Below, in pieces: positions 3,796 through 47,886 of a stretch of 64,000 nucleotides of DNA. The first letter of the stretch is position 1. Each line of letters begins with the position of its first letter. Both the position numbers and the translations under genes were made by a program. The notes below the pieces were generated by a model, which was given only the letters and a program-made list of their open reading frames with translations, made no database searches and was not told the DNA's origin. This DNA is from Niveispirillum irakense DSM 11586. Its GTDB lineage: Bacteria; Pseudomonadota; Alphaproteobacteria; Azospirillales; Azospirillaceae. The stretch lies in contig NZ_AUCG01000016.1 in the NCBI RefSeq assembly GCF_000429645.1, positions 310,001-374,000 of the forward strand, in the 5' to 3' direction.

Positions 3796-4893
3796 ATGAC
3801 CGGCCCGATCCCCAATCCCGGTATCCTGGACATCGCCCCCTATGTCGGCGGGGAGGCCCATGCCCCCGGTGCCGACCGGTTGATCCGGCTGGCCTCCAAT
3901 GAAGGCGCCCTGGGTCCCAGCCCCAAGGCGATGGAAGCCTATCGCAACCTGACGGGGGAGCTTCACCGCTATCCCGATGGCACAGCCAAGGCCCTGCGGG
4001 AGGCGATCGGACGCCGCTATGGCTATGATCCGGCGCGCATCGTCTGCGGCGCTGGCTCGGACGAGCTCCTGCAGCTTCTCGCCAAATGCTATGCCGGGCC
4101 GGGGACGGAGGTACTTTATTCCCGTCACGGCTTCCTGATCTATCCGATTGCCGCCAAGTCGGTGGGCGCCACCGCCGTGGCCGCCCCGGAAACGAACCTG
4201 AAATCCGATGTGGATGCCCTGCTGGCGCGGGTGAATGAACGCACGCGCATCGTCTTCATCGCCAACCCGAACAACCCGACCGGCAGTTATCTGACCGCGC
4301 GCGAACTGACCCGCCTGCATGCCGGCCTGCCCGAGCATGTGCTGCTGGTGATTGATGCCGCCTATGCGGAATTTGTGCGCACCAATGATTACAGCTCCGG
4401 CGCGGAACTGGTGGAAAGCTTCCCCAACGTCGTCATGACGCGGACCTTCTCCAAGATTTACGCGCTGGGCGGGCTGCGGCTGGGCTGGGCCTATTGCTCC
4501 AGCAATGTGGCCGATGTGCTGAACCGGGTGCGCGGGCCCTTCAACATCTCCTCTTCCGCTATCGCCGCCGGCGTGGCCGCGATGGAGGATGTGGAATTCG
4601 TTGAGAAGTCCCGCATCCTGAATGACGAGAACCGCAACTGGTTCGTGGAACAGGTGCAGGCGCTGGGCCTGAAGGTCCATCCGTCCGTCGCCAATTTCGT
4701 GCTGGTCGATTTCAGCGAGCAGTTGGGCCAGAAGGCCGACCCGGAAGCCGCCCGGCAATTGCTGAAATCACGCGGCATCCTGGTCCGCCAGATGAGTTCC
4801 TACGGCCTGGGCAACTGCCTGCGCATCTCCATCGGCCTGCGGGAAGAGATGGAGCAGGTGGTGAAGGGCTTGGCTGATTGGGTGCATGGATAA
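3796..4893 (+). CDS. hisC: Histidinol-phosphate aminotransferase
   Basis: PLP-dependent fold-type I aminotransferase, 365 residues. Typical HisC features: LASNEGALGPSPKA near residue 32, HRYPDG at 57, the NPNNPTG signature at about 157-163, and the PLP-binding lysine in TFSKIYALGGLRLGW (Lys about 220). It should transaminate imidazole-acetol phosphate in histidine synthesis. In this gene order, between a chorismate mutase and a prephenate dehydrogenase, this HisC type often also serves aromatic amino acid transamination; that dual role is inference. Same strand as both neighbours, with gaps of 69 and 98 bp, so an operon is likely. Confidence 0.94.
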   Translation: MTGPIPNPGILDIAPYVGGEAHAPGADRLIRLASNEGALGPSPKAMEAYRNLTGELHRYPDGTAKALREAIGRRYGYDPARIVCGAGSDELLQLLAKCYAGPGTEVLYSRHGFLIYPIAAKSVGATAVAAPETNLKSDVDALLARVNERTRIVFIANPNNPTGSYLTARELTRLHAGLPEHVLLVIDAAYAEFVRTNDYSSGAELVESFPNVVMTRTFSKIYALGGLRLGWAYCSSNVADVLNRVRGPFNISSSAIAAGVAAMEDVEFVEKSRILNDENRNWFVEQVQALGLKVHPSVANFVLVDFSEQLGQKADPEAARQLLKSRGILVRQMSSYGLGNCLRISIGLREEMEQVVKGLADWVHG

Positions 4894-4916
4894 TCCCAGC
4901 CCCATCGGCATCGTTG

Positions 4917-4950
4917 TGCCGGCCATGGGATTGGATGATCCCGGCCGGCA
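4917..4950. repeat. Imperfect hairpin between hisC and tyrC
   Basis: Inverted repeat of 13 paired bases with a 2-nt bulge: TGCCGGCC (4917-4924) with GGCCGGCA (4943-4950), and inner GGGAT (4927-4931) with ATCCC (4938-4942). No T-run follows, so it is not a clear terminator. It may attenuate or process the hisC-tyrC transcript. Confidence 0.5.
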
Positions 4951-4991
4951 TGATAGTGACGGTGGCTTAACTCCCCGAAGGTAGCTTTCCC

Positions 4992-5876
4992 ATGACCGCC
5001 CCGCTTTTTACCCGCGTCGCCATTGTCGGCTTCGGCCTGATCGGTTCCTCGATCGCGCGGTGCGTGGCGGAATATCCGGGGCTGGCCGGGGATGTTGTCT
5101 GTATCGACCGCAGCCAGGCCGTTTGCGACCGGGTGATGGAACTGGGGCTGGCCGCCACCGCCAGCCCGGATCCGGCGCTCGCCGCCACGGCTGATCTGGT
5201 GGTGCTGGCCACACCCATCGGGGCCTTCGCCGATCTGGGCGCCGTGATCTGCCCGCATCTGAAGCCCGGCACCATCCTGACCGATGTCGGGTCGGTGAAA
5301 CAGTCGGTGCTGCGTGATATCGGCCCGCATGTGCCCGAGGGCGTGCATTTCATCCCCGGCCATCCGCTGGCCGGCACCGAACATTCCGGCCCCGATGCCG
5401 GGTTTGCCGCCCTGTTCAAGAACCGCTGGTGCATCCTGACCCCGCCTCCGGGCGCGAACCCGGATGCGGTGGAGAAGCTGGCCGCCTTCTGGCGCGGCTG
5501 CGGCAGCCAGTTGGAGATGATGGAGCCCGGCCACCATGACCGGGTGCTGGCCATCACCAGCCATCTGCCGCACTTGATCGCCTATACCATCGTCGGCACG
5601 GCGACCGATCTGGAAGACCATCTGAAATCGGAAGTGATCCGGTTTTCCGCCAGCGGCTTCCGCGATTTCACCCGCATCGCCGCCAGCGACCCCGTGATGT
5701 GGCGCGACATTTTCCTGAACAACCGGGAAGCCGTGCTGGAAGTGATCCAGCGCTTCACGGAAGATTTGACCGCGTTGCAGCGTGCCATCCGCTGGGGCGA
5801 GGGGGAAAAGCTGGAAGAATTATTCACCCGCACCCGCGCCATCCGCCGGTCCATCATCGACGCGCGGCAGGCCTGA
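4992..5876 (+). CDS. tyrC: Prephenate/arogenate dehydrogenase
   Basis: Oxidative decarboxylase of tyrosine synthesis, 294 residues, matching the TyrA/TyrC family. The N-terminal Rossmann motif VAIVGFGLIGSSIAR is at about residues 9-23. LATPIGAFADL and TDVGSVKQSV follow, then the catalytic-region motif HFIPGHPLAGTEHSG, where His contacts the substrate in characterised homologues, and a C-terminal helical dimerisation region. There is no chorismate mutase or ACT fusion; the mutase is a separate gene upstream. Substrate choice (prephenate or arogenate) cannot be told from sequence. Last gene of the CM-hisC-tyrC block. Confidence 0.93.
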   Translation: MTAPLFTRVAIVGFGLIGSSIARCVAEYPGLAGDVVCIDRSQAVCDRVMELGLAATASPDPALAATADLVVLATPIGAFADLGAVICPHLKPGTILTDVGSVKQSVLRDIGPHVPEGVHFIPGHPLAGTEHSGPDAGFAALFKNRWCILTPPPGANPDAVEKLAAFWRGCGSQLEMMEPGHHDRVLAITSHLPHLIAYTIVGTATDLEDHLKSEVIRFSASGFRDFTRIAASDPVMWRDIFLNNREAVLEVIQRFTEDLTALQRAIRWGEGEKLEELFTRTRAIRRSIIDARQA

Positions 5877-5944
5877 GGGGCCCTTCCCCCCTCCCCCTCA
5901 TCCGAATGACCCGGCCGCCCTCCCCCGATGACGGCATGCGCCAT

Positions 5945-5973
5945 CTTGTAAGCCCCGGCCACTTTGATAGGCT
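5945..5973 (+). promoter_or_regulatory. Candidate promoter for eutBC-kinase operon
   Basis: CTTGTA (5945-5950) and TAGGCT (5968-5973) are separated by 17 bp, about 35 bp upstream of the GTG start of eutB. Both boxes are moderate matches. The 130-bp gap is too short for a cobalamin riboswitch and none is seen. Confidence 0.35.
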
Positions 5974-6006
5974 GGCGCCACATTATCGTCGCCAGGGGGA
6001 TTAAGC

Positions 6007-7392
6007 GTGGGCTTCGCCGCGACACTGGGCCGGACACAATACCGGTTCGATGATCTGGGCACCCTGCTGGCCAAGGCAGGGCCCGCCCGTTCCGGCGATG
6101 TGCTGGCCGGGGTCGCTGCCGCCAGCGATGCTGAACGGGTAGCCGCCCGGCTGGCGCTGGCCGATGTGCCGCTGAAAACCTTCCTGTCCACTGACCTGAT
6201 CCCCTATGAGGCGGATGAGGTGACGCGCCTGATCATGGACAGCCATGAGGGTACCGCCTTCGCGCCTGTATCCGCGATGACGGTGGGGCAGTTCCGCGAC
6301 TGGCTGCTGTCGGATGCGGCGGATGGCCCGGCCCTGGCCGCCTTATCGCCCGGCCTGACCCCGGAAATGGTGGCCGCCACATCCAAGCTGATGCGCAACC
6401 AGGACCTGATCGCCGTGGCGCGCAAATGCCGGGTGGTCAGCCGCTTCCGCACCAGCATCGGCCTGCCCGGCCGCCTGTCCGTGCGCTTGCAGCCCAACCA
6501 CCCGACGGATGATCCAACGGCCATTGCCGCCGCCATCCTGGATGGGTTGATGTATGGCTGCGGTGATGCCGTGATCGGCATCAACCCCGCCACCGACACG
6601 GTCGGCAGCAGTCTGGACCTTCTGTCCATGATGGACGAGATGCGGCGGCGCTGGGATGCGCCGGTGCAGACCTGCGTGCTGGCCCATGTCACCACCATGA
6701 TGCAGGTGATGGAGCGCGGCGGCCCGGTTGATCTGGTCTTTCAGTCCATTGCCGGGTCGCAGGCCGCCAACCGCGCCTTCGGTGTGGATTTATCCCTGCT
6801 GGCCGAAGCGCAGGAGGCCGCATTGGCCCTGAAGCGCGGCACCATCGGCGACAATGTGATGTATTTTGAAACCGGCCAGGGCAGCGCCCTGTCCGCTGAT
6901 GCCCATCACGGGCTGGACCAGCAGACGATGGAGGTGCGGGCCTATGCCGTGGCACGGCACTTCCGCCCGCTGCTGGTCAACAGCGTCGTCGGCTTCATCG
7001 GGCCGGAATATCTTTATGACGGCAAACAGATCACCCGCGCCGGGCTGGAGGATCATTGCTGCGGCAAGCTGCTGGGCCTGCCGATGGGGGTGGATGTCTG
7101 CTACACCAACCATGCAGAAGCCGATCAGGATGATATGGACAATCTGCTGACCCTGCTGGGGGTGGCCGGCTGTTCCTACATCATGGGCGTGCCGGGGGCC
7201 GATGACATCATGCTGTCCTACCAGAGCACATCCTTCCATGATGCGCTTTATGTCCGCTCGGCCCTGGGCCTGCGCCCGGCACCGGAATTTGAGGCCTGGC
7301 TGGCCCGGATGGGGGTGATGGATGGCAACGGTCGGATGCGCCCGGCCTTGGACGGCACCGGCGCCGGACGCCTGCTGGCGGGAACGCTTTGA
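6007..7392 (+). CDS. eutB: Ethanolamine ammonia-lyase large subunit
   Basis: Catalytic subunit of the adenosylcobalamin-dependent enzyme that splits ethanolamine into acetaldehyde and ammonia. At 461 residues it covers the whole family length and starts with the family-typical pattern TQYRFDDLGTLLAKAGP-RSGDVLAGVAA. Other recognisable stretches are VGSSLDLLSMMDEM, MQVMERGGPVDLVFQSIAG and GMCYTNHA-like DVCYTNHAEADQDDMDN. The start is GTG at 6007, preceded by AGGGGG at a good distance; an ATG would lose conserved N-terminal residues. It overlaps eutC by one base. No microcompartment shell, permease or reactivase genes are near, so this is the minimal, carboxysome-free form. Confidence 0.96.
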   Translation: MGFAATLGRTQYRFDDLGTLLAKAGPARSGDVLAGVAAASDAERVAARLALADVPLKTFLSTDLIPYEADEVTRLIMDSHEGTAFAPVSAMTVGQFRDWLLSDAADGPALAALSPGLTPEMVAATSKLMRNQDLIAVARKCRVVSRFRTSIGLPGRLSVRLQPNHPTDDPTAIAAAILDGLMYGCGDAVIGINPATDTVGSSLDLLSMMDEMRRRWDAPVQTCVLAHVTTMMQVMERGGPVDLVFQSIAGSQAANRAFGVDLSLLAEAQEAALALKRGTIGDNVMYFETGQGSALSADAHHGLDQQTMEVRAYAVARHFRPLLVNSVVGFIGPEYLYDGKQITRAGLEDHCCGKLLGLPMGVDVCYTNHAEADQDDMDNLLTLLGVAGCSYIMGVPGADDIMLSYQSTSFHDALYVRSALGLRPAPEFEAWLARMGVMDGNGRMRPALDGTGAGRLLAGTL

Positions 7393-8195
7393 TGAGCGAT
7401 AACGAGGCTTTCGACGGTCCTTGGGCGCGGCTGCGGCGGATGACGCCGGCCCGTGTCGGGCTGGGACGCACGGGTGACGGGCTGCCCACAGCCCGGCTGC
7501 TGGAATTTCAGGCCGCCCACGCCCTGGCGCGCGATGCCGTTCACCAGCCGCTGGATGCCGATGCGCTGGCTGACCAGCTTTGCTCCGAACCCCATCTGAT
7601 GGTGCGCAGTCAGGCGCCGGACCGGGCGACATATCTCCAGCGGCCCGACCTGGGCCGGCGGCTGCATCCGGAGGACGCCACCGCGCTGTCGGCGATGAGT
7701 TGCCCGTCCGGGGGCCGGCACGATGGATATGCGGCCGTGATCGTGCTGGCGGACGGGCTGTCCGCCCGCGCGCTGCATGATCATGGCGTCCCGCTGCTGC
7801 GCGCCCTGCTGCCGCATCTGGAAGGCTGGGAACTGGCCCCTATCGTCATTGCCCGTCAGGCGCGCGTGGCCCTGGGCGATGATGTCGCCGCTGCGCTGAA
7901 CGCGCGCATGGTGCTGATGCTGATCGGGGAGCGGCCAGGATTGAGCGCGGCCGACAGTATCGGCGCCTATCTGACCTTCCAGCCGCGACCGGGCATGAGC
8001 CGGGATGCCGAGCGCAACTGCGTATCCAACATCCGTCCCGACGGGCTGCCCCTGGCCGTCGCCGCCGATACCATCGCCTTTCTGATGCGGGAGGCACAGC
8101 GCCTGAAGCTGACCGGTATCGGCCTGAAAGCGGACCGCCCGCCGGCTCTGGGCGAAACCATCAAGTCCCCCGCCACCCTGACGGCGCCACAATGA
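7392..8195 (+). CDS. eutC: Ethanolamine ammonia-lyase small subunit
   Basis: Light chain of ethanolamine ammonia-lyase, 267 residues from the ATG at 7392 (a TTG one codon earlier is also possible). The signature ARVGLGRTGDGLPTARLLEF and the following AHALARDAVHQPLD are strongly conserved in EutC. Later FQPRPGMSRDAERNCVSNIR and GLPLAVAADTIAFLMREA close the subunit. It helps bind the cobalamin cofactor in the heteromeric enzyme. The eutB stop TGA (7390-7392) and the eutC ATG share a base, and the eutC stop overlaps the kinase start (ATGA), so translational coupling across three genes is likely. Confidence 0.95.
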   Translation: MSDNEAFDGPWARLRRMTPARVGLGRTGDGLPTARLLEFQAAHALARDAVHQPLDADALADQLCSEPHLMVRSQAPDRATYLQRPDLGRRLHPEDATALSAMSCPSGGRHDGYAAVIVLADGLSARALHDHGVPLLRALLPHLEGWELAPIVIARQARVALGDDVAAALNARMVLMLIGERPGLSAADSIGAYLTFQPRPGMSRDAERNCVSNIRPDGLPLAVAADTIAFLMREAQRLKLTGIGLKADRPPALGETIKSPATLTAPQ

Positions 8196-10486
8196 ACAGC
8201 ACAAGGCGGCTTGCCCTGGCCGCAAGCGCCATTGCCCTTCCCATGCTGGTTTTTGCCGGTACCCTGGTCGGCGTGCTGGACCGGGACCGCGAACGACAGG
8301 CAGAGGCCGCCGTGCGCACGGTGGCCCAGGACGGTCTTGCCGCCGTGGAAGCGGAACTGGCGGCGGAACTGGCCACCTTGCAGGCACTGGCCAGCACGCC
8401 GGGCCTTGCCCGGTCGCAGCCAGAACCCTTCATCGCCTATGCTAACCGCATGCTGGCATTGCGGCCCGGCTGGTGCGCCGTGATCCTGTTCGACAGTGAC
8501 GGCACGGTTCAGGCTCAGGCCGGGCGGGAGGGGCAGGTTCAGGCACCGATCCTGCCAGCCCCGGAGCAGCCGCGTATCAGTTCCCTTTTCCAACCATCCG
8601 AATGCGGGGATGGACCGGGCATCGCGCTGGATATCGCCATCGGCCGGCAGGGCCAGCAATTACGGGCAGTGGTGCGCCCCGCCGTGCTGGCTGGCGGCCT
8701 GGAGGAAATCGCAGCCCCCACCGGCTGGGTGGTTGGCCTGCTGGATAAGGACCAGCAGATCCTGGCGCGCCTGCCCAACCCGGAAAAATATATCGGCCGG
8801 TCAATCTCCCCCAGTCTGGCGACGCGCCTGCACGAGATGGCCACATCCGGCAGACAAGCCGATTTTTTCTACACCGCCAGCCAGGCGACGGGTGAGAACA
8901 TGGCGGTCGCCATGCTGCGCGGCGACCGCAGCGGCTGGTGGGTAATCGCCGCTGCACCGGCCGCCACGCTTGAGGAACCGCAACTGCGATTCCGCCTGAC
9001 CATGCTGGCAGCAGGGGGGATCAGCATCGCCATGGTGCTGGTGCTGGCGCTGGCCTTTGGCCACACCACCGCCCGCCGCCGGGAGGCGGAACTGGCATTG
9101 GCCCGGTTGCGGGGGGAAAAGCGGGAGGAAAAGCGGCTGACGGAGGTGGCCAGCAACCTGCCGGGCATCATCTATCGCCGGGTGCGCCACCCGGACGGGT
9201 CGGTCACCTATCCTTACCTCAGCGCCGCTGCCGCGCCCTTGCTGGGGGTGTCGGTTCAACCGGGCGGCCTTTCGGGCGAGGATATGGAAAAGCTGATCCT
9301 GCCCGAAGAGCGCGCCCTGTGGGCTGCTGAACTGGACCGGTCGGCGCGGCTGTTGCTGCCTTATCGGGTAGAGGCGCGCATCCGCCGTCCGGATGGCAGC
9401 ATCCGCTGGCTGCGCAGCGGCGCATCGGCCCGGGCGCTTGGCGATGGCAGCATCATCTGGGATGGCGTCGCCATCGACATTACCGACCTGAAGGAGGCGG
9501 AAGGCGCGTTGCGGACGCAGCAGCATATGCTGACTGTTGCCATGCGCTCCGGCCGGCTGATGCTGTGGTCAGTTGATCTGGAAACGGATGGGGTGACCTG
9601 CGCCCCCGAACTGGCAAACCTGTTCGGCCTGTCCCATCTGGAACAGCCCTTCCCGGTCCACCACATCTTCGACCGGATCGTCCCGGAGGAACGGGAGGCG
9701 ATCCAGGCCGATTATGAAGCGGCAGCACGTGAAGGCGGCGACTATCAGCATGAATTCCGCGTGCTGGATACGGGTGACGGGCCGCGCTGGCTGGCCGTTT
9801 CCGCCCAGGCGGACACCACCCCGGATGGACGCCCCTTGCGCATGGTGGGCGTGACCCGCGACATCACCGCCCGCAAAAAAGCCCAGGCCCGGCAGGAATT
9901 GCTGATGCGGGAGGTGGATCATCGCGCCAAGAATGTGCTGGCCGTGGTGCAATCCCTCGTTCGCCTGACCCGCGCCGACAGCCAGCAGGCATTCGTTGCG
10001 GCGGTGGAAGGCCGGGTTTCCGCCCTGGCGCGGGCCCATGCGCTGCTGGCCCGCAACAAATGGAAGGGTGCATCGCTCAGGGCCCTGGCAGAAGAGGCAC
10101 TTGCGCCCTATCTGGGCGCCGATGCCCTGGACCGCACCCGGCTGACCGGGCCGTCGCTGGATGTGGGGCCGGATGCCACCCAGGCCGTCGGCATGATCTT
10201 CCATGAACTGGCGACCAATGCCGCCAAATATGGCGCGCTCGCCACCCCATCGGGGCGGGTGGCGGTGGATTGGGAAATCGTGGCGGGGGATCTGCACCTG
10301 ATCTGGCGCGAAAGCGGCGGGCCACCGGTGCAGCCACCGGCAGGCCGGGGCTTCGGTTCCCAGATGATCGATGCCAATGTCCGCATGCAGCTACGCGGCC
10401 GGCTGGAGATGCAATGGCACACGGATGGGCTTCTCTGCCATATCGTGCTGCCGCTCGCCGCCCTGACCGGCACCGCGCCGGACTAG
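8192..10486 (+). CDS. HWE-family sensor histidine kinase with PAS domains
   Basis: Membrane sensor kinase of 764 residues. It has an N-terminal transmembrane helix (about 8-30), a periplasmic domain to about residue 260 and a second helix (about 268-290). Two PAS/PAC regions follow (about 305-435 and 440-555, the second ending GVTRDITARKKAQ), then an HWE kinase core. The H-box is REVDHRAKN with His about 577, the N-box is FHELATNAAKYGAL with Asn about 676, and the family-defining W-x-E appears as IWRES. It autophosphorylates on His and should pass phosphate to an unlinked response regulator; none adjoins it. Its start overlaps the eutC stop by four bases, so it is made with ethanolamine ammonia-lyase. 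Its stop TAG lies inside the 104-bp repeat. Confidence 0.9.
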   Translation: MNSTRRLALAASAIALPMLVFAGTLVGVLDRDRERQAEAAVRTVAQDGLAAVEAELAAELATLQALASTPGLARSQPEPFIAYANRMLALRPGWCAVILFDSDGTVQAQAGREGQVQAPILPAPEQPRISSLFQPSECGDGPGIALDIAIGRQGQQLRAVVRPAVLAGGLEEIAAPTGWVVGLLDKDQQILARLPNPEKYIGRSISPSLATRLHEMATSGRQADFFYTASQATGENMAVAMLRGDRSGWWVIAAAPAATLEEPQLRFRLTMLAAGGISIAMVLVLALAFGHTTARRREAELALARLRGEKREEKRLTEVASNLPGIIYRRVRHPDGSVTYPYLSAAAAPLLGVSVQPGGLSGEDMEKLILPEERALWAAELDRSARLLLPYRVEARIRRPDGSIRWLRSGASARALGDGSIIWDGVAIDITDLKEAEGALRTQQHMLTVAMRSGRLMLWSVDLETDGVTCAPELANLFGLSHLEQPFPVHHIFDRIVPEEREAIQADYEAAAREGGDYQHEFRVLDTGDGPRWLAVSAQADTTPDGRPLRMVGVTRDITARKKAQARQELLMREVDHRAKNVLAVVQSLVRLTRADSQQAFVAAVEGRVSALARAHALLARNKWKGASLRALAEEALAPYLGADALDRTRLTGPSLDVGPDATQAVGMIFHELATNAAKYGALATPSGRVAVDWEIVAGDLHLIWRESGGPPVQPPAGRGFGSQMIDANVRMQLRGRLEMQWHTDGLLCHIVLPLAALTGTAPD

Positions 10487-23369: not shown

Positions 23370-23470
23370 AGTGTGATCGGTTCAAATGGAATCATTTGAA
23401 CCGTGAATCACACGACAAAACAAAAGCTTAGAGTCCATCTGATGCTTCAATCAGCATCGGATGGACTCTA
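23367..23470 (-). repeat. 104-bp palindromic repeat R1, copy B (inverted)
   Basis: Second copy of the TAGAGT...ACTCTA element, in opposite orientation to copy A; 99 of 104 positions agree. Hairpin 2 here is extended by outer arms GTGTGAT/ATCACAC, and hairpin 1 has one mismatch (A for G). The T-rich stretch after hairpin 1 faces the minus strand. It begins in the ACT gene stop codon, and its last three bases (CTA) are shared with the start of the structured element R2. Confidence 0.92.
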
Positions 23471-23627
23471 ATACCAACCCCCCTTGATCTTGACCGATCA
23501 AGGGAGGTTTCATGTTCCCTCAACGCCGGGCGCTGCCTCCGGCAGCTTGGCTTACGCGCCCATGGGGGCGCGGGCTGGCGGTCGCCAGCCTCCATTCTGC
23601 CTAAAGATCAAGCTTTAGGCAGAATGG
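23468..23627 (+). repeat. Structured element R2, copy 1 (five hairpins)
   Basis: About 160 nt beginning CTAATACCA, with five hairpins in a row. H1: 23476-23489 with 23496-23509 (one mismatch). H2: GCTGCC/GGCAGC at 23532-23546. H3: CGCGCCC-ATGG-GGGCGCG. H4: 23573-23590, GGCTGGC-GGTC-GCCAGCC. H5: perfect 15-bp stem, 23592-23606 with 23613-23627. The minus-strand element at 45251-45400 has the same hairpin order, loops and short conserved landmarks (CTAATACCA, TGACCGAT, CGCCGG, TTGGCT, ACGC) at nearly equal spacing but different stem sequences. No coding frame runs through it. Bases 23628-23723 beyond it, up to polA, show nothing definite. Confidence 0.8.
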
Positions 23628-23723
23628 TTAAGCACAGACACCTGCTGGTGGCCATCGCTGGACAGCGGCGGCGGCATGGGCCATGTTCCGGGCGTGAACG
23701 CACCCGGAACGACAGGTCTCCCC

Positions 23724-41160: not shown

Positions 41161-41221
41161 GGCGGGACACTCCCATCAGGACAGGTTACGGCCGTCGCGG
41201 GGATCGTCCCCGCGGCGGTTG

Positions 41222-41438
41222 CCCCCCTCTGTCCTGGCCCCTGAGAGATTCGCCGCGTGATTTACACGTCGGCTTACTCCGTCGGTGGGCTGTCGGCCGG
41301 GGTGGAACCCCTGCCCGCCTGCTTTCCAGATGCGCCTACCCTGAGCGGTCCTTTTGCCTGAGAGTTTCCGGGGGCGGTTGCTCCTTCGGCGCTGTCTTCC
41401 CTCTCTGTCCACCAGATCAGGGCAACAGTCTCTCCCGC
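41222..41438 (-). ncRNA. Tandem glycine riboswitch upstream of gcvT
   Basis: On the minus strand two glycine aptamer signatures are visible. The first runs from CGGGAGAGAC through GCGCCGAAGGAGCAA to CTCTCAGGCAAAAGGAC. The second ends with AATCTCTCAGGGGCCAGGAC followed by AGAGGGG. The spacing and placement, about 60 nt before the gcvT start, match the cooperative two-aptamer gcvT element. Glycine binding should switch on the gcv operon. Exact ends are approximate. Confidence 0.93.
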
Positions 41439-41464
41439 AAAGGGTAATCGGCTATGCACGCGCC

Positions 41465-45226: not shown

Positions 45227-45250
45227 CTGGTAGGGTCTTCAACCGCCCTA

Positions 45251-45400
45251 TACGATCGGTCAAAATTCTTGACCGATCGTACGGCGGCGACTGCCGCCGC
45301 GCCGCTCATGCGGCGTAGCCAAGTCGCTGGATGGCGACGCCGGCGATCGAGGTGCACGAAAGCGTGACCATCGGTCATGATTTCGTGCCGCTGGTATTAG
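45251..45400 (-). repeat. Structured element R2, copy 2 (five hairpins)
   Basis: 150 nt on the minus strand beginning CTAATACCA, whose TAA is the stop codon of the TonB receptor. Five hairpins: H1 GCACGAAA/TTTCGTGC enclosing TGACC-GAT-GGTCA; H2 GTCGC/GCGAC; H3 GCCGC-ATGA-GCGGC; H4 CGGCGGC-AGTC-GCCGCCG; H5 a perfect 13-bp stem (45251-45263 with 45269-45281). TGACCGAT begins 23 nt after the element start in both copies, and the next 47-48 nt lead to TTGGCT in both. H2 to H5 have different stem sequences from copy 1 but remain fully paired. Confidence 0.8.
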
Positions 45401-47652
45401 AACTGCTTCTTCAGCGACACGAAGAATTGCTGCGGCGCGCCCGGCAGCAGCGTCTGGGCATTGCCCGACGGATCGCTGTTGGTGAAGCCGTTGGAGCCGA
45501 TGGTGGCGATGTACTTCTTGTCGAACAGGTTGGTGGCATTGGCCTGGATCACCAGACCTTCCATCCAGGGGGAACCCTGGAACCGGTAGCCGATGCTGGC
45601 TTCCACCAGCGTGTAGCTGTCGACCGAGGCATCGTTCAGATAGGTGTAATAGCGCTTGGACGTGTAGTTGGCGCCGATGGAACCGAACAGGTTGCCATCA
45701 TCATAACCGACCTCGCCCTTCAGCAGATGCTTGGGCGTGTTGACGACTGTTTTACCATCGGTGCGGACGGTGGTGGTGCCATCCACCACATCATCGTCAT
45801 AGGTGCTGTCATTGTAGGTGTAGGAACCGAACAGCGACAGCTCGTCAGTCAGGTTATAGGTGCCGGCGGTTTCCACACCACGGGTGGAGACGCCACCCAC
45901 ATTCTGCAGCGACGGCGGCAGGCCCTGAATGCCGGAACCGACGGTGACCGTCAGCAGGCGGTCATCAAACTGCACATCATAGGCAGCAACCACGCCCTGG
46001 AAATTCTCGGTCCGGAAACGCCAGCCCAGTTCGATGGTACGGCTGGATTCCGGCTCCAGCCCGTCGCGGATACGGTTGAAGGCATCCGCCGTCGTGCTGA
46101 ACGGGCCGCCGGTGCCGGAGGATTCGAAGGCACGCATATTCTCGGTATAGGAGGCGAAAATCTGGTGCTCGTTGTTGATATCGTAGAGCACACCGGCCTG
46201 GGGCAGGAAATTATCCTTGGCCTTGATGGAGCCGGTCTTGACCGGGCCGACCAGCGTGTCGGCCTTGTTCTCCACATTCACTGACTTGAAGCCGGCGGTC
46301 AGGGTCAGGTCTTCCATCACTTTCCACGCGTCCGACAGGTGGAACTGCGTGGTCTTGGTGTTGAAGCTATATTCCCACTGGGTGGCGAACGGGCCGGTCT
46401 GGAACTCAGTGGAGAAGCGGCCCGGCGAGGCGCGGTTCAGCCCGTAAAAGCGCCGGGCATGGTTGAAATCATTATCCTCGTACCAGAAGCCGCCATTGAT
46501 CGTGTGATCGCCCAGCGTCACCGTCAGGCCACCCGTGGCCCCATAGCGCTCAATGTCATATTCGGTGGTGCGGATGGACATCGGCGCGCCGCCCGGCGTC
46601 GGCACGTAAGGGGTGAACCACACGCCCTGGCCATCATTGGTATGGCCATAACCGGTCAGATCGACACTGACGATATCGCTGATCGGATAATTCAGGGTGA
46701 CGGCGCCGATCGTGTCCTTGCGCAGGCCGGCGGCATCGTAATAGGCATCATCCACCGTCTGGACCGGGGCCGGGTAAGGACCGGTGGCCAGACCGTTATA
46801 GATATCGGCAACCTGAAGGGCCAAAGCCCAGTTCTTGGCGAAATTGTCCCAGTCATGGCCGAGGCGATTGATCATCGACTCCGACATGTCCTGGTAATCA
46901 TTTTCACGCCGGTCGGACCAGTTGATCCAGCCGGTCAGCGTACCCTCACCGACATTCTGGACCGCCTTGAAATTGAACTGGTCCTGCTTCTGGATGCCGT
47001 TGCCTTTCCACTTCTCGCCATTCTGGCGCATGTAGCTGAGATAGGCGCGGGTGCCGGTTTCCAGCTCACCCGTATCCAGGCGCACGAAACCGCGACCGGT
47101 ATTCTCACTGCCATAGGAACCGGCGACATAGGCCCCGGCGTCTTGCGACGGATCGCGGGAGATGAACTGTACCGTGCCGCCCAGATTGCTGGTGGAAGGC
47201 GTGGCCAGCGAACCCGCGCCCTGGGCCACCGTCACGGTGCCGATATTTTCAGAGCTGATGGCGCGGCTGATATGCAGGCCATTATGGTTGCCATAGGACA
47301 TGTCGCCCAGCGGCACGCCATCCAGCGTGAAGCCCAACTGGTTCTGGTTGAAGCCGCGGATGCTGATACGGGCCGACCATTCATAGGCGCCGAACGCATC
47401 GGCTGACTGGAAGCTGACACCCGGCAGCTTGTCGATCGCCTTCAAGGGGCTGGTGCCCGGCGCTTCCAGCGCGATGGCAGCCTGGCTGATCCCCTGGACC
47501 TGACGGGCTTCCCCCCGGCCAAAGACGATGATTTCCTCCAGCATTTCACCCGCATCGGCGACCTGTGCTTGCGGAGCGGTCTGGCCCATGACGGGCGAGA
47601 CGAGGATCAGCGTAGCCAGCGCCGTGCCGGCCAGAAGACGATCATGTTTCAT
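45397..47652 (-). CDS. TonB-dependent receptor, substrate unknown
   Basis: Outer-membrane transporter of 751 residues from the ATG at 47650-47652 (AGGGAAG upstream). Sec signal about 1-24. The plug has an unusual VFGRGEARQVQGISQAAIALEAPGTSPLKAIDKLPGVSFQSADAFGAYEWSARISIRGF, then FTLDGVPLGDMSYGNHNGL and STSNLGGTVQFISRDPS. The barrel ends in NLFDKKYIATIGSNGFTNSDPSGN...LPGAPQQFFVSLKKQF with the terminal Phe needed for assembly. Next to a PhoD-like phosphatase, so it may import a phosphate ester or its product; in some alphaproteobacteria such pairs respond to phosphate. A direct repeat CGTCAA spaced 22 bp lies upstream. Its stop codon lies in element R2. Confidence 0.9.
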   Translation of the reverse strand: MKHDRLLAGTALATLILVSPVMGQTAPQAQVADAGEMLEEIIVFGRGEARQVQGISQAAIALEAPGTSPLKAIDKLPGVSFQSADAFGAYEWSARISIRGFNQNQLGFTLDGVPLGDMSYGNHNGLHISRAISSENIGTVTVAQGAGSLATPSTSNLGGTVQFISRDPSQDAGAYVAGSYGSENTGRGFVRLDTGELETGTRAYLSYMRQNGEKWKGNGIQKQDQFNFKAVQNVGEGTLTGWINWSDRRENDYQDMSESMINRLGHDWDNFAKNWALALQVADIYNGLATGPYPAPVQTVDDAYYDAAGLRKDTIGAVTLNYPISDIVSVDLTGYGHTNDGQGVWFTPYVPTPGGAPMSIRTTEYDIERYGATGGLTVTLGDHTINGGFWYEDNDFNHARRFYGLNRASPGRFSTEFQTGPFATQWEYSFNTKTTQFHLSDAWKVMEDLTLTAGFKSVNVENKADTLVGPVKTGSIKAKDNFLPQAGVLYDINNEHQIFASYTENMRAFESSGTGGPFSTTADAFNRIRDGLEPESSRTIELGWRFRTENFQGVVAAYDVQFDDRLLTVTVGSGIQGLPPSLQNVGGVSTRGVETAGTYNLTDELSLFGSYTYNDSTYDDDVVDGTTTVRTDGKTVVNTPKHLLKGEVGYDDGNLFGSIGANYTSKRYYTYLNDASVDSYTLVEASIGYRFQGSPWMEGLVIQANATNLFDKKYIATIGSNGFTNSDPSGNAQTLLPGAPQQFFVSLKKQF

Positions 47653-47886
47653 GTGAGACTTCCCTGGAAGGCCGCTGGTGGTTGTTTTGCTGCGGCGCAC
47701 AGGGGCGATAACATGCTAATATTGCGCTGATTTGACGCTACGGTTCCTGATTCTTGACGGTTTTTGAACGCGATTGCGAAACAGGGGATGCCACCCTTGT
47801 TGGAAAGCCCGATTGCGATAGGGCGCGGCGGCGGCTAGAACAGCCGCATCATCTTTCTTCCATGTGCCGGAAAGGGGCGGAGTTCC

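What the first reader, a model, noticed from the sequence alone, without database searches (positions are those of the whole stretch)
23468..23627. Two intergenic elements with conserved five-hairpin architecture and covarying stems
The plus-strand element here and the minus-strand element at 45251-45400 align end to end. Both open with CTAATACCA, have TGACCGAT exactly 23 nt after the element start, then CGCCGG, and TTGGCT after 48 or 47 nt, ACGC, ATG and GTCGCC. Between these landmarks the same five hairpins occur in order with similar loops (H3 ATGG/ATGA, H4 GGTC/AGTC), but stem bases of H2-H5 differ and remain complementary (H4 GGCTGGC/GCCAGCC against CGGCGGC/GCCGCCG; H5 shares almost no stem sequence). 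Covariation of this kind implies selection on a folded RNA or on folded single-stranded DNA, for example a mobile hairpin element. I do not recognise it as a named family.
Basis: partly seen in the sequence, partly recalled or inferred. Interest (0 to 1): 0.78.

Follow-up and report, generated by a model that had tools for sequence, protein, structure and literature searches.

The report
Hairpin-packed mini-transposon family in Alphaproteobacteria
The two look-alike hairpin stretches are copies of a small mobile DNA element that carries no gene, has spread to many places in these bacteria (often right at gene stop codons), and keeps an unusual, strongly conserved folded core whose job and whose moving enzyme are not yet known.

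Summary
The two copies belong to a dispersed repeat family: 47 core hits at E<1e-6 in this genome (36 of them built the model), at least 14 in each of the 11 genomes of the genus, and hits in 12 genomes outside the family among 240 drawn from the class. Three central hairpins covary strongly (90 distinct copies, 254 two-sided changes against 64 in shuffles). It is a mobile element: it ends TACCA...TGGTA and is flanked by an exact 3-bp TNA target duplication (42 of 55 copies, shuffles mean 16.5, maximum 29). Element-free sites exist in congeners. It lies outside genes, and in 20 of 42 cases the duplicated triplet is a gene's stop codon. Nothing points to an RNA acting on the given strand. The likeliest account is a non-autonomous element (MITE) moved by a DDE-type transposase with TNA targets; that enzyme was not found, and no Y1/RAYT transposase is present here. 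Unusually for a MITE, the folded core is conserved while the ends vary, and the core also occurs without these ends as inverted pairs and tandem arrays. Rfam has no match.

The parts
23469..23471 (+). left target triplet TAA of copy 1
   Evidence: sequence; TNA duplication rule from 55 copies
23472..23628 (+). mobile element copy 1 (TACCA...TGGT; right tip appears to have lost two bases)
   Evidence: 97% identical copy L002 with intact ends
23476..23509 (+). hairpin H1 (left terminal module, TTGATC/GATCAA type)
   Evidence: fold
23516..23590 (+). conserved three-hairpin core (covariance model R1, 71.5 bits)
   Evidence: covariation
23525..23551 (+). hairpin H2 (GCCGG...TTGGC outer, variable inner stem)
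   Evidence: pair counts
23555..23572 (+). hairpin H3
23573..23590 (+). hairpin H4 (GGCTGGC GGTC GCCAGCC)
23592..23627 (+). hairpin H5 (right terminal palindrome)
23629..23631 (+). right target triplet TAA of copy 1, next to a small deletion
   Evidence: sequence; inference
45397..45399 (-). left target triplet TAA of copy 2, which is also the stop codon of the TonB-dependent receptor gene (45397-47700 -)
45251..45396 (-). mobile element copy 2 (TACCA...TCGTA)
45350..45392 (-). hairpin H1 (GCACGAAA/TTTCGTGC type)
   Evidence: fold
45282..45353 (-). conserved three-hairpin core (R1, 87.7 bits)
45318..45344 (-). hairpin H2
45300..45315 (-). hairpin H3
45282..45299 (-). hairpin H4
45251..45281 (-). 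hairpin H5 (right terminal palindrome)
45248..45250 (-). right target triplet, now TAG (left copy is TAA): degenerate duplication
   Evidence: sequence; inference

Best explanation
The two stretches are copies of one family of small non-autonomous transposable elements, like MITEs: 141-162 bp in 55 measured copies and most often 146 bp, with no gene. Each is built as TACCA - hairpin H1 - CCTCA - three-hairpin core - palindrome H5 - TGGTA. SHOWN: copies insert into TNA triplets, duplicate exactly those 3 bp, lie between genes, and very often use the TAA or TGA stop codon of a neighbouring gene, so the gene is unharmed. INFERRED: a DDE-type transposase encoded elsewhere cuts at the TACCA tips and makes a 3-bp staggered cut at TNA, as reported for the IS1031 group of the IS5 family. 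INFERRED: new stem sequences arise in active source copies and spread by copying, which is why stems differ between subfamilies yet stay paired. INFERRED: the conserved folded core is kept because source copies need it, as a cis signal for movement or as a harmless or protective 3' hairpin cluster for the host gene.
For: Family size and spread. Covariation. Ends and duplication: 55 of 100 copies have both ends at 6 of 7 or better; 42 of those 55 carry the same TNA on both sides (shuffles mean 16.5, maximum 29 of 10,000), and none has a longer duplication. By source that is 10 of 19 in this genome and 32 of 36 in relatives, the latter taken from the best-scoring hits. Empty sites: copy L074 against G001 (AAGCCTTACTCGG uninterrupted) and copy L093 against G001 and G009. 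Of 19 sites in G001 compared with G009, 9 read through without the element, 7 of them with a confirmed duplication and a clean or nearly clean junction; 3 are filled in both genomes. The polA-upstream site of copy 1 has no core in 10 of 10 congeners. Stop-codon use: 20 of 42, against 10% of noncoding TNA sites in the window. Placement: 0 of 40 inside genes and 2 of 40 between divergent genes, against 9 of 38 divergent gaps in the window. The same TNA duplication occurs in 8 of 20 copies read in five genomes of other families (by eye). The TNA rule of the IS1031 group was read as a passage in PMC12016507.
Against: No transposase with TACCA ends was found. 30 loci (of 40 DDE_Tnp_1 matches in five genomes) showed none convincing; a loose end pattern paired up only in L222, with no inverted-repeat agreement. 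The TNA-duplicating IS elements seen there begin GAG. 344 kb of contiguous DNA held no longer element with these ends, but that strict test recovered only about 3 of the 14 strong cores known there, so it is weak. Of 23 right-end loci examined (30 fetched, 46 places) in two genomes, about 19 are attached to their own core, so no autonomous relative was seen. 45 of 100 copies have ends too decayed to test. Beyond TACCA the two ends of one copy often agree only loosely. The core is better conserved than the ends and also occurs without them, as inverted pairs and tandem arrays, which a plain transposase-recognises-ends model does not explain.
Confidence: 0.75

Rival explanations
1. A structured RNA gene or RNA regulator scattered in the genome, selected as RNA.
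For: Strong covariation with conserved linkers and loops; position downstream of genes means many copies would be transcribed; the core alone is slightly more stable on the given strand in 44 of 55.
Against: A.C departures outnumber G.T on the given strand, 28 to 10. Whole-element antisense fold more stable in 47 of 55. Copies between co-oriented genes lie both ways, 13 against 8. Sites are mostly not shared between species. No Rfam family at gathering score; at E up to 1 only a far-sub-threshold tracrRNA hit (27.1 bits, cut-off 70) touches an element.
Confidence: 0.07
2. A REP/REPIN-type element moved as folded single-stranded DNA by a Y1 tyrosine transposase (RAYT).
For: Palindromic, intergenic, downstream of genes; the core occurs in inverted pairs in other genomes.
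Against: No Y1_Tnp (PF01797) match in 14 of 18 genomes searched, among them G000 and several rich in copies. A 3-bp target duplication is present. No GTAG or CGTC tag of the kind described in PMC3733652.
Confidence: 0.05
3. A mobile element whose hairpins were taken over by the host as 3' mRNA stabilisers, terminators or spacers, and whose structure is now kept by selection on host genes at each site.
For: Stop-codon and convergent-gene placement. REP hairpins close to stop codons affect mRNA decay and translation, as cited in PMC5082802 (passages).
Against: High turnover: 9 of 19 compared sites are empty in a congener and 3 are filled in both, and the polA site is empty in 10 of 10. Too few shared-site copies to test post-insertion selection.
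Confidence: 0.2
4. Covariation without function: hairpin arms are corrected against each other during replication (template switching), so palindromes stay perfect whatever they do.
For: Very few one-sided intermediates (12 one-sided against 254 two-sided cells); copy L313 shows an H2 whose one arm and loop look inverted in place.
Against: Linkers and loops between the stems are conserved over several families (in one search partly by construction), which correction of arms does not explain.
Confidence: 0.15

Closest known systems
Bacterial MITEs, e.g. ERIC, Correia/NEMIS, RUP (PMC10969869, PMC2229807; passages read)
   Same: Under 200 bp, no gene, terminal inverted ends, target duplication, intergenic, tens of copies, strong secondary structure.
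   Different: GC-rich (62%) rather than A+T-rich; TNA 3-bp duplication; five separate hairpins rather than one end-to-end stem; core conserved more than the ends; core also found in other arrangements.
CIR elements of Caulobacter and Brucella (described in PMC2229807; original paper not held)
   Same: Alphaproteobacterial, strictly intergenic, built of separate arms joined by linkers.
   Different: CIR has two arms and a conserved GANTC site; here five hairpins and GANTC in only 9 of 55 copies (about 0.5 per copy expected by composition). CIR sequences themselves were not compared.
CGTC- and GTAG-tagged REPs, BIMEs and REPINs (PMC3733652; abstract and passages)
   Same: Palindromic, mostly downstream of genes or between convergent genes, inverted dimers; CGTC REPs predominate in Alphaproteobacteria and apparently lack a dedicated transposase.
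   Different: REPs are 20-40 bp palindromes with a GTAG or CGTC tag; here 141-162 bp with ends and target duplication.
Br-REP1 of Bradyrhizobium (PMC5082802; abstract and passages)
   Same: Three adjacent stem-loops, alphaproteobacterial, in overlapping 3' UTRs of convergent genes.
   Different: Different consensus (CCGGAATCTCGAGATTCCGG); no target duplication described in the passages read.
IS1031 group of the IS5 family (PMC12016507; one passage)
   Same: TNA target, exclusive 3-bp duplication.
   Different: Ends of that group's ISLrh begin GAA, and of the TNA-duplicating IS elements read here GAG, not TACCA.

Membership tests
MITE (non-autonomous DNA transposon) | short, no coding gene | tested here: met
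   141-162 bp in 55 measured copies; none of 40 context-checked copies lies inside a predicted gene
MITE (non-autonomous DNA transposon) | inverted terminal repeats | tested here: met
   TACCA...TGGTA, 55 of 100 copies at 6 of 7 or better at both ends; agreement beyond 5-6 bp is loose and subfamily-specific
MITE (non-autonomous DNA transposon) | target-site duplication of fixed length | tested here: met
   3 bp TNA, 42 of 55 (10 of 19 own, 32 of 36 relatives), shuffles mean 16.5 and maximum 29
MITE (non-autonomous DNA transposon) | element-free sites in relatives | tested here: met
MITE (non-autonomous DNA transposon) | autonomous partner with the same ends | tested here: inconclusive
   none in 30 of 40 DDE_Tnp_1 matches from five genomes, in 344 kb by an insensitive test, or at 23 right-end loci; other DDE transposase families not searched
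IS1031/IS5-derived element | TNA 3-bp duplication | tested here: met
   rule from PMC12016507
IS1031/IS5-derived element | ends matching the group's IS ends | tested here: not met
   TNA-duplicating IS of relatives (L222, L235, L240) begin GAG; ours begin TACCA
REP / RAYT system | Y1 transposase in the genome | tested here: not met
   PF01797: 0 in G000; present in 4 of 18 genomes
REP / RAYT system | GTAG or CGTC tagged 20-40 bp hairpin | tested here: not met
   core consensus CCTCAnnCGCCGGGCG...CTTGGCT, no such tag, judged against PMC3733652
CIR elements | conserved GANTC in a loop | tested here: not met
   9 of 55 copies hold any GANTC
Rfam family | match at gathering score | tested here: not met
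   no hit on any element; at E up to 1: one hit touching an element, far below its cut-off

The most novel reading that the evidence does not exclude
An uncharacterised and old alphaproteobacterial transposition system in which a folded three-hairpin core, not the terminal repeats, is the conserved recognition signal. The same core serves TACCA-ended TNA-targeting elements in several families, REPIN-like inverted pairs, and tandem arrays, while the ends are exchangeable modules.
Probability: 0.2. Interest if true: 0.8.

Novelty: new variant of a known kind. Interest (0 to 1): 0.55.

Why it matters
It gives a very abundant, apparently unnamed repeat of Azospirillaceae and other Alphaproteobacteria a clear identity as a mobile element, with exact ends, a target rule and element-free sites to test against. 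It also poses a sharp question. Why should a gene-less element keep a three-hairpin core by compensatory change over several bacterial families while its ends drift? Because copies land on stop codons, it also offers natural filled/empty pairs for measuring what a 3' hairpin cluster does to a gene.

Tried and rejected
Y1/RAYT mobilisation: no PF01797 in G000. IS5-type donor with the same ends: none convincing among the 30 fetched PF01609 loci L220-L249 of 40 matches. Longer elements with the same ends in 344 kb: none, by a strict tip rule that recovered only about 3 of 14 known strong cores. Right ends without their own core: L305/L307 (one lone palindrome seen from both sides) and L309; L310 has a short decayed core; L305 was flagged as having a core only because of a neighbouring element. 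Rfam at gathering and at E up to 1: nothing near a cut-off on an element. CIR membership by GANTC: rejected. Site conservation upstream of polA: rejected. Synteny of the window with G009 and G001 was too broken for a window-wide comparison of insertions. A first synteny script took a wrong record as the window and printed no alignment (redone). A strict DNA pattern over the 84,980-genome collection found one record only, Azospirillum sp. RU38E, so that scan says nothing about spread. Plasmid searches matched only Niveispirillum cyanobacteriorum or nothing; phages nothing. The plasmid record opened had no usable annotation. Literature: ten searches, by key words and once by sequence words, found no description of this element; this covers only the open-licence library, and Chen and Shapiro 2003 (CIR) was not held. 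The A.C over G.T excess could mean that the complementary strand is the folded one, or a transcription-strand mutation bias; left open.

Full report
OBSERVATION. Copy 1 (window 23468-23627, +) and copy 2 (45251-45400, -) exist as described. The landmark spacings 23, 48/47 and 1/0 were reproduced, the alignment score is far above shuffles (48 against a maximum of 27 in 300), and both fold as five successive hairpins. Copy 1 lies between a 113-codon open frame and the DNA polymerase I gene. The region around that gene holds no core within 1.5 kb in 10 of 10 other genomes of the genus, although only the nearest one, G009, keeps the same upstream gene. Copy 2 lies between a TonB-dependent receptor gene and a PhoD-like phosphatase gene.

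FAMILY. blastn with each copy found many partial and full relatives in the same genome. Thirty-six copies were aligned (A2). RNAalifold found three hairpins (H2, H3, H4) with 13 of 22 pairs changed on both sides in at least one copy. Against 500 shuffles, two-sided changes were 113 against 36. A covariance model of this core (R1) gives 47 hits at E<1e-6 and 56 at E<0.01 in this genome; 36 of the 47 built the model. On 103 matches from nine genomes (90 distinct), 98.0% of cells pair against 84.3% in shuffles, with 254 two-sided changes against 64 and only 12 one-sided. On 115 matches from other families and from viral-collection contigs of unknown host (99 distinct), 96.4% pair against 74.0%. 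Many of those were found by a pattern that fixes the linkers and part of H2, so for them linker conservation is by construction, while H3, H4 and the variable H2 positions were free. Both larger alignments were fitted to the model's structure, which leans towards it.

SPREAD. R1 matches 31 of 59 related genomes, including 11 of 11 of the genus (14 to 83 hits each, 83 being the number scored) and other genera of the family. In a class-wide draw it matches 14 of 240 genomes at E<=1e-5; 12 of the 14 are outside the family. The genus is inferred to be Niveispirillum or very close: plasmids of Niveispirillum cyanobacteriorum carry copies, and G001 has a contig of the same length as a record of Azospirillum sp. 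RU38E.

IT MOVES. Borders were read on 100 copies: 40 of this genome and 60 of relatives, the latter from the best-scoring hits. 55 have both tips at 6 of 7 positions or better. In 42 of the 55 the same TNA triplet stands on both sides (TTA 22, TCA 10, TAA 5, TGA 5); shuffling partners gives 16.5 on average and 29 at most in 10,000, and none is longer than three. The split is 10 of 19 in this genome and 32 of 36 in relatives. The other 45 copies did not pass the tip threshold and were left out. Uninterrupted sites were then sought. Of five G000 sites tried (of eleven prepared), two read cleanly through in a congener: L074 in G001, and L093 in G001 and G009. A third, L002, gives single matches across the junction in nine congeners at 67-70% identity, not inspected at the base level. 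L068 and L075 matched on one side only or were too diverged. Of 19 G001 sites compared with G009, 9 read through without the element. Seven of these have a confirmed duplication and a clean or nearly clean junction (L173 lacks one base); at L163 the junction has diverged and at L178 the duplication is unconfirmed. Five matched on one flank only and five had no good match. A model search of the fetched G009 loci shows that three of the one-flank sites are filled there too (L162, L167, L171); L164 and L179 show no core. In five genomes of other families 8 of 20 fetched copies show the same TNA duplication by eye (in G045, G078 and G260); 3 of the 20 are cut by contig ends.

WHERE IT LANDS. Of 40 copies with up to 1.5 kb of context on each side, none is inside a predicted gene: 17 lie between convergent genes, 21 between co-oriented genes and 2 between divergent genes. 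In the window, 9 of 38 gaps are divergent and 6 convergent. Genes were called with a simple codon model of my own, so these counts are approximate. In 20 of 42 duplication-confirmed copies the triplet is the stop codon of the neighbouring gene, 16 times on the right side and 4 on the left; about 10% of noncoding TNA sites in the window are stop codons. The target reads TYA rather than TRA in the element's own orientation 32 to 10 (p 0.0009), so insertion is oriented. Copy 2 is an example: its left TAA is the stop codon of the TonB receptor gene.

MODULES. The ends come in several types whose left and right tips resemble each other, and types are mixed in some copies; L175 has a left end of one type and a right end of another. 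Short forms lacking H2 and H3 exist (L014, L023, L027, L043, L054). In viral-collection contigs the core stands in inverted pairs 62-80 bp apart (8 pairs in L362, L365, L382, L387) and in tandem runs mostly 33-41 bp apart on one contig (L355, L379, L380). So the constant part of the family is the folded core with its linkers CCTCA, CGCCGG(G)CG and CTTGGCT, not the ends. This is the opposite of an ordinary MITE and is the most unusual feature.

WHICH STRAND, WHICH MOLECULE. If the given strand acted as RNA, G.U should be commoner than A.C among departures. It is rarer: 10 against 28 in the core, with 12 other mismatches (p 0.005, cells not independent), and 2 against 8 in H5 of 45 copies, with 18 others. 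The complementary strand of the whole element folds more stably in 47 of 55 copies, although the core alone is slightly more stable on the given strand in 44 of 55. The tandem G.T pairs next to the bulge of H2 are almost invariant on the given strand. I conclude that there is no case for an RNA on the given strand and that the strand question is open.

MECHANISM. A 3-bp duplication of fixed length implies staggered cutting of both target strands (established knowledge of DDE transposases). The TNA rule with an exclusive 3-bp repeat is reported for the IS1031 group of the IS5 family (PMC12016507, one passage). IS elements with TNA duplications are resident in relatives, but their ends begin GAG. 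No Y1 transposase gene is found in this genome. The best account is therefore a MITE-like element moved in trans by an unidentified DDE transposase. Landing on stop codons spares genes. Why the core is conserved is not known: need in cis for movement, host benefit and palindrome correction remain possible.

NOVELTY. Ten literature searches of the open-licence library found no description (listed in Tried and rejected), and Rfam 15 has no family for it. MITEs, REPs and CIR elements are known kinds; this is a new variant with an unusual conserved multi-hairpin core.

Noticed in passing
window 41219-41447 (-): Tandem glycine riboswitch (two Rfam RF00504 hits, 66.9 and 32.3 bits); ordinary.
   Followed up: no
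window 23370-23471: Two further palindromic repeats directly upstream of copy 1 (AGTGTGATCGGTTCAAATGG... and TTAGAGTCCATC...GATGGACTCTAA). The second starts GAGTCC like the end of an IS5-type element in G001 (L223), so copy 1 may sit beside another small palindromic element.
   Followed up: partly
L362 (viral-collection contig), 4817-10403: Four inverted pairs of the core between terminase, portal, capsid and tail genes of what looks like a gene-transfer-agent or prophage cluster.
   Followed up: partly
L379, L380, L355: Tandem runs of the core on one contig, up to five copies 33 bp apart.
   Followed up: partly
L313 (G001): H2 reads GCCAAC-ATGCC-AACGGC, as if the loop and one arm had been inverted in place: a possible template-switch event.
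   Followed up: no
core copies of nine genomes: Excess of A.C over G.T departures in stems on the given strand; strand-specific mutation or a folded complementary strand.
   Followed up: partly
L136 (G009, upstream of polA): A different palindromic repeat beginning CGTCATTCCCGCGAAGGCGGGAATCC, which resembles CGTC-tagged REPs (recalled resemblance), stands near where G000 has copy 1.
   Followed up: no
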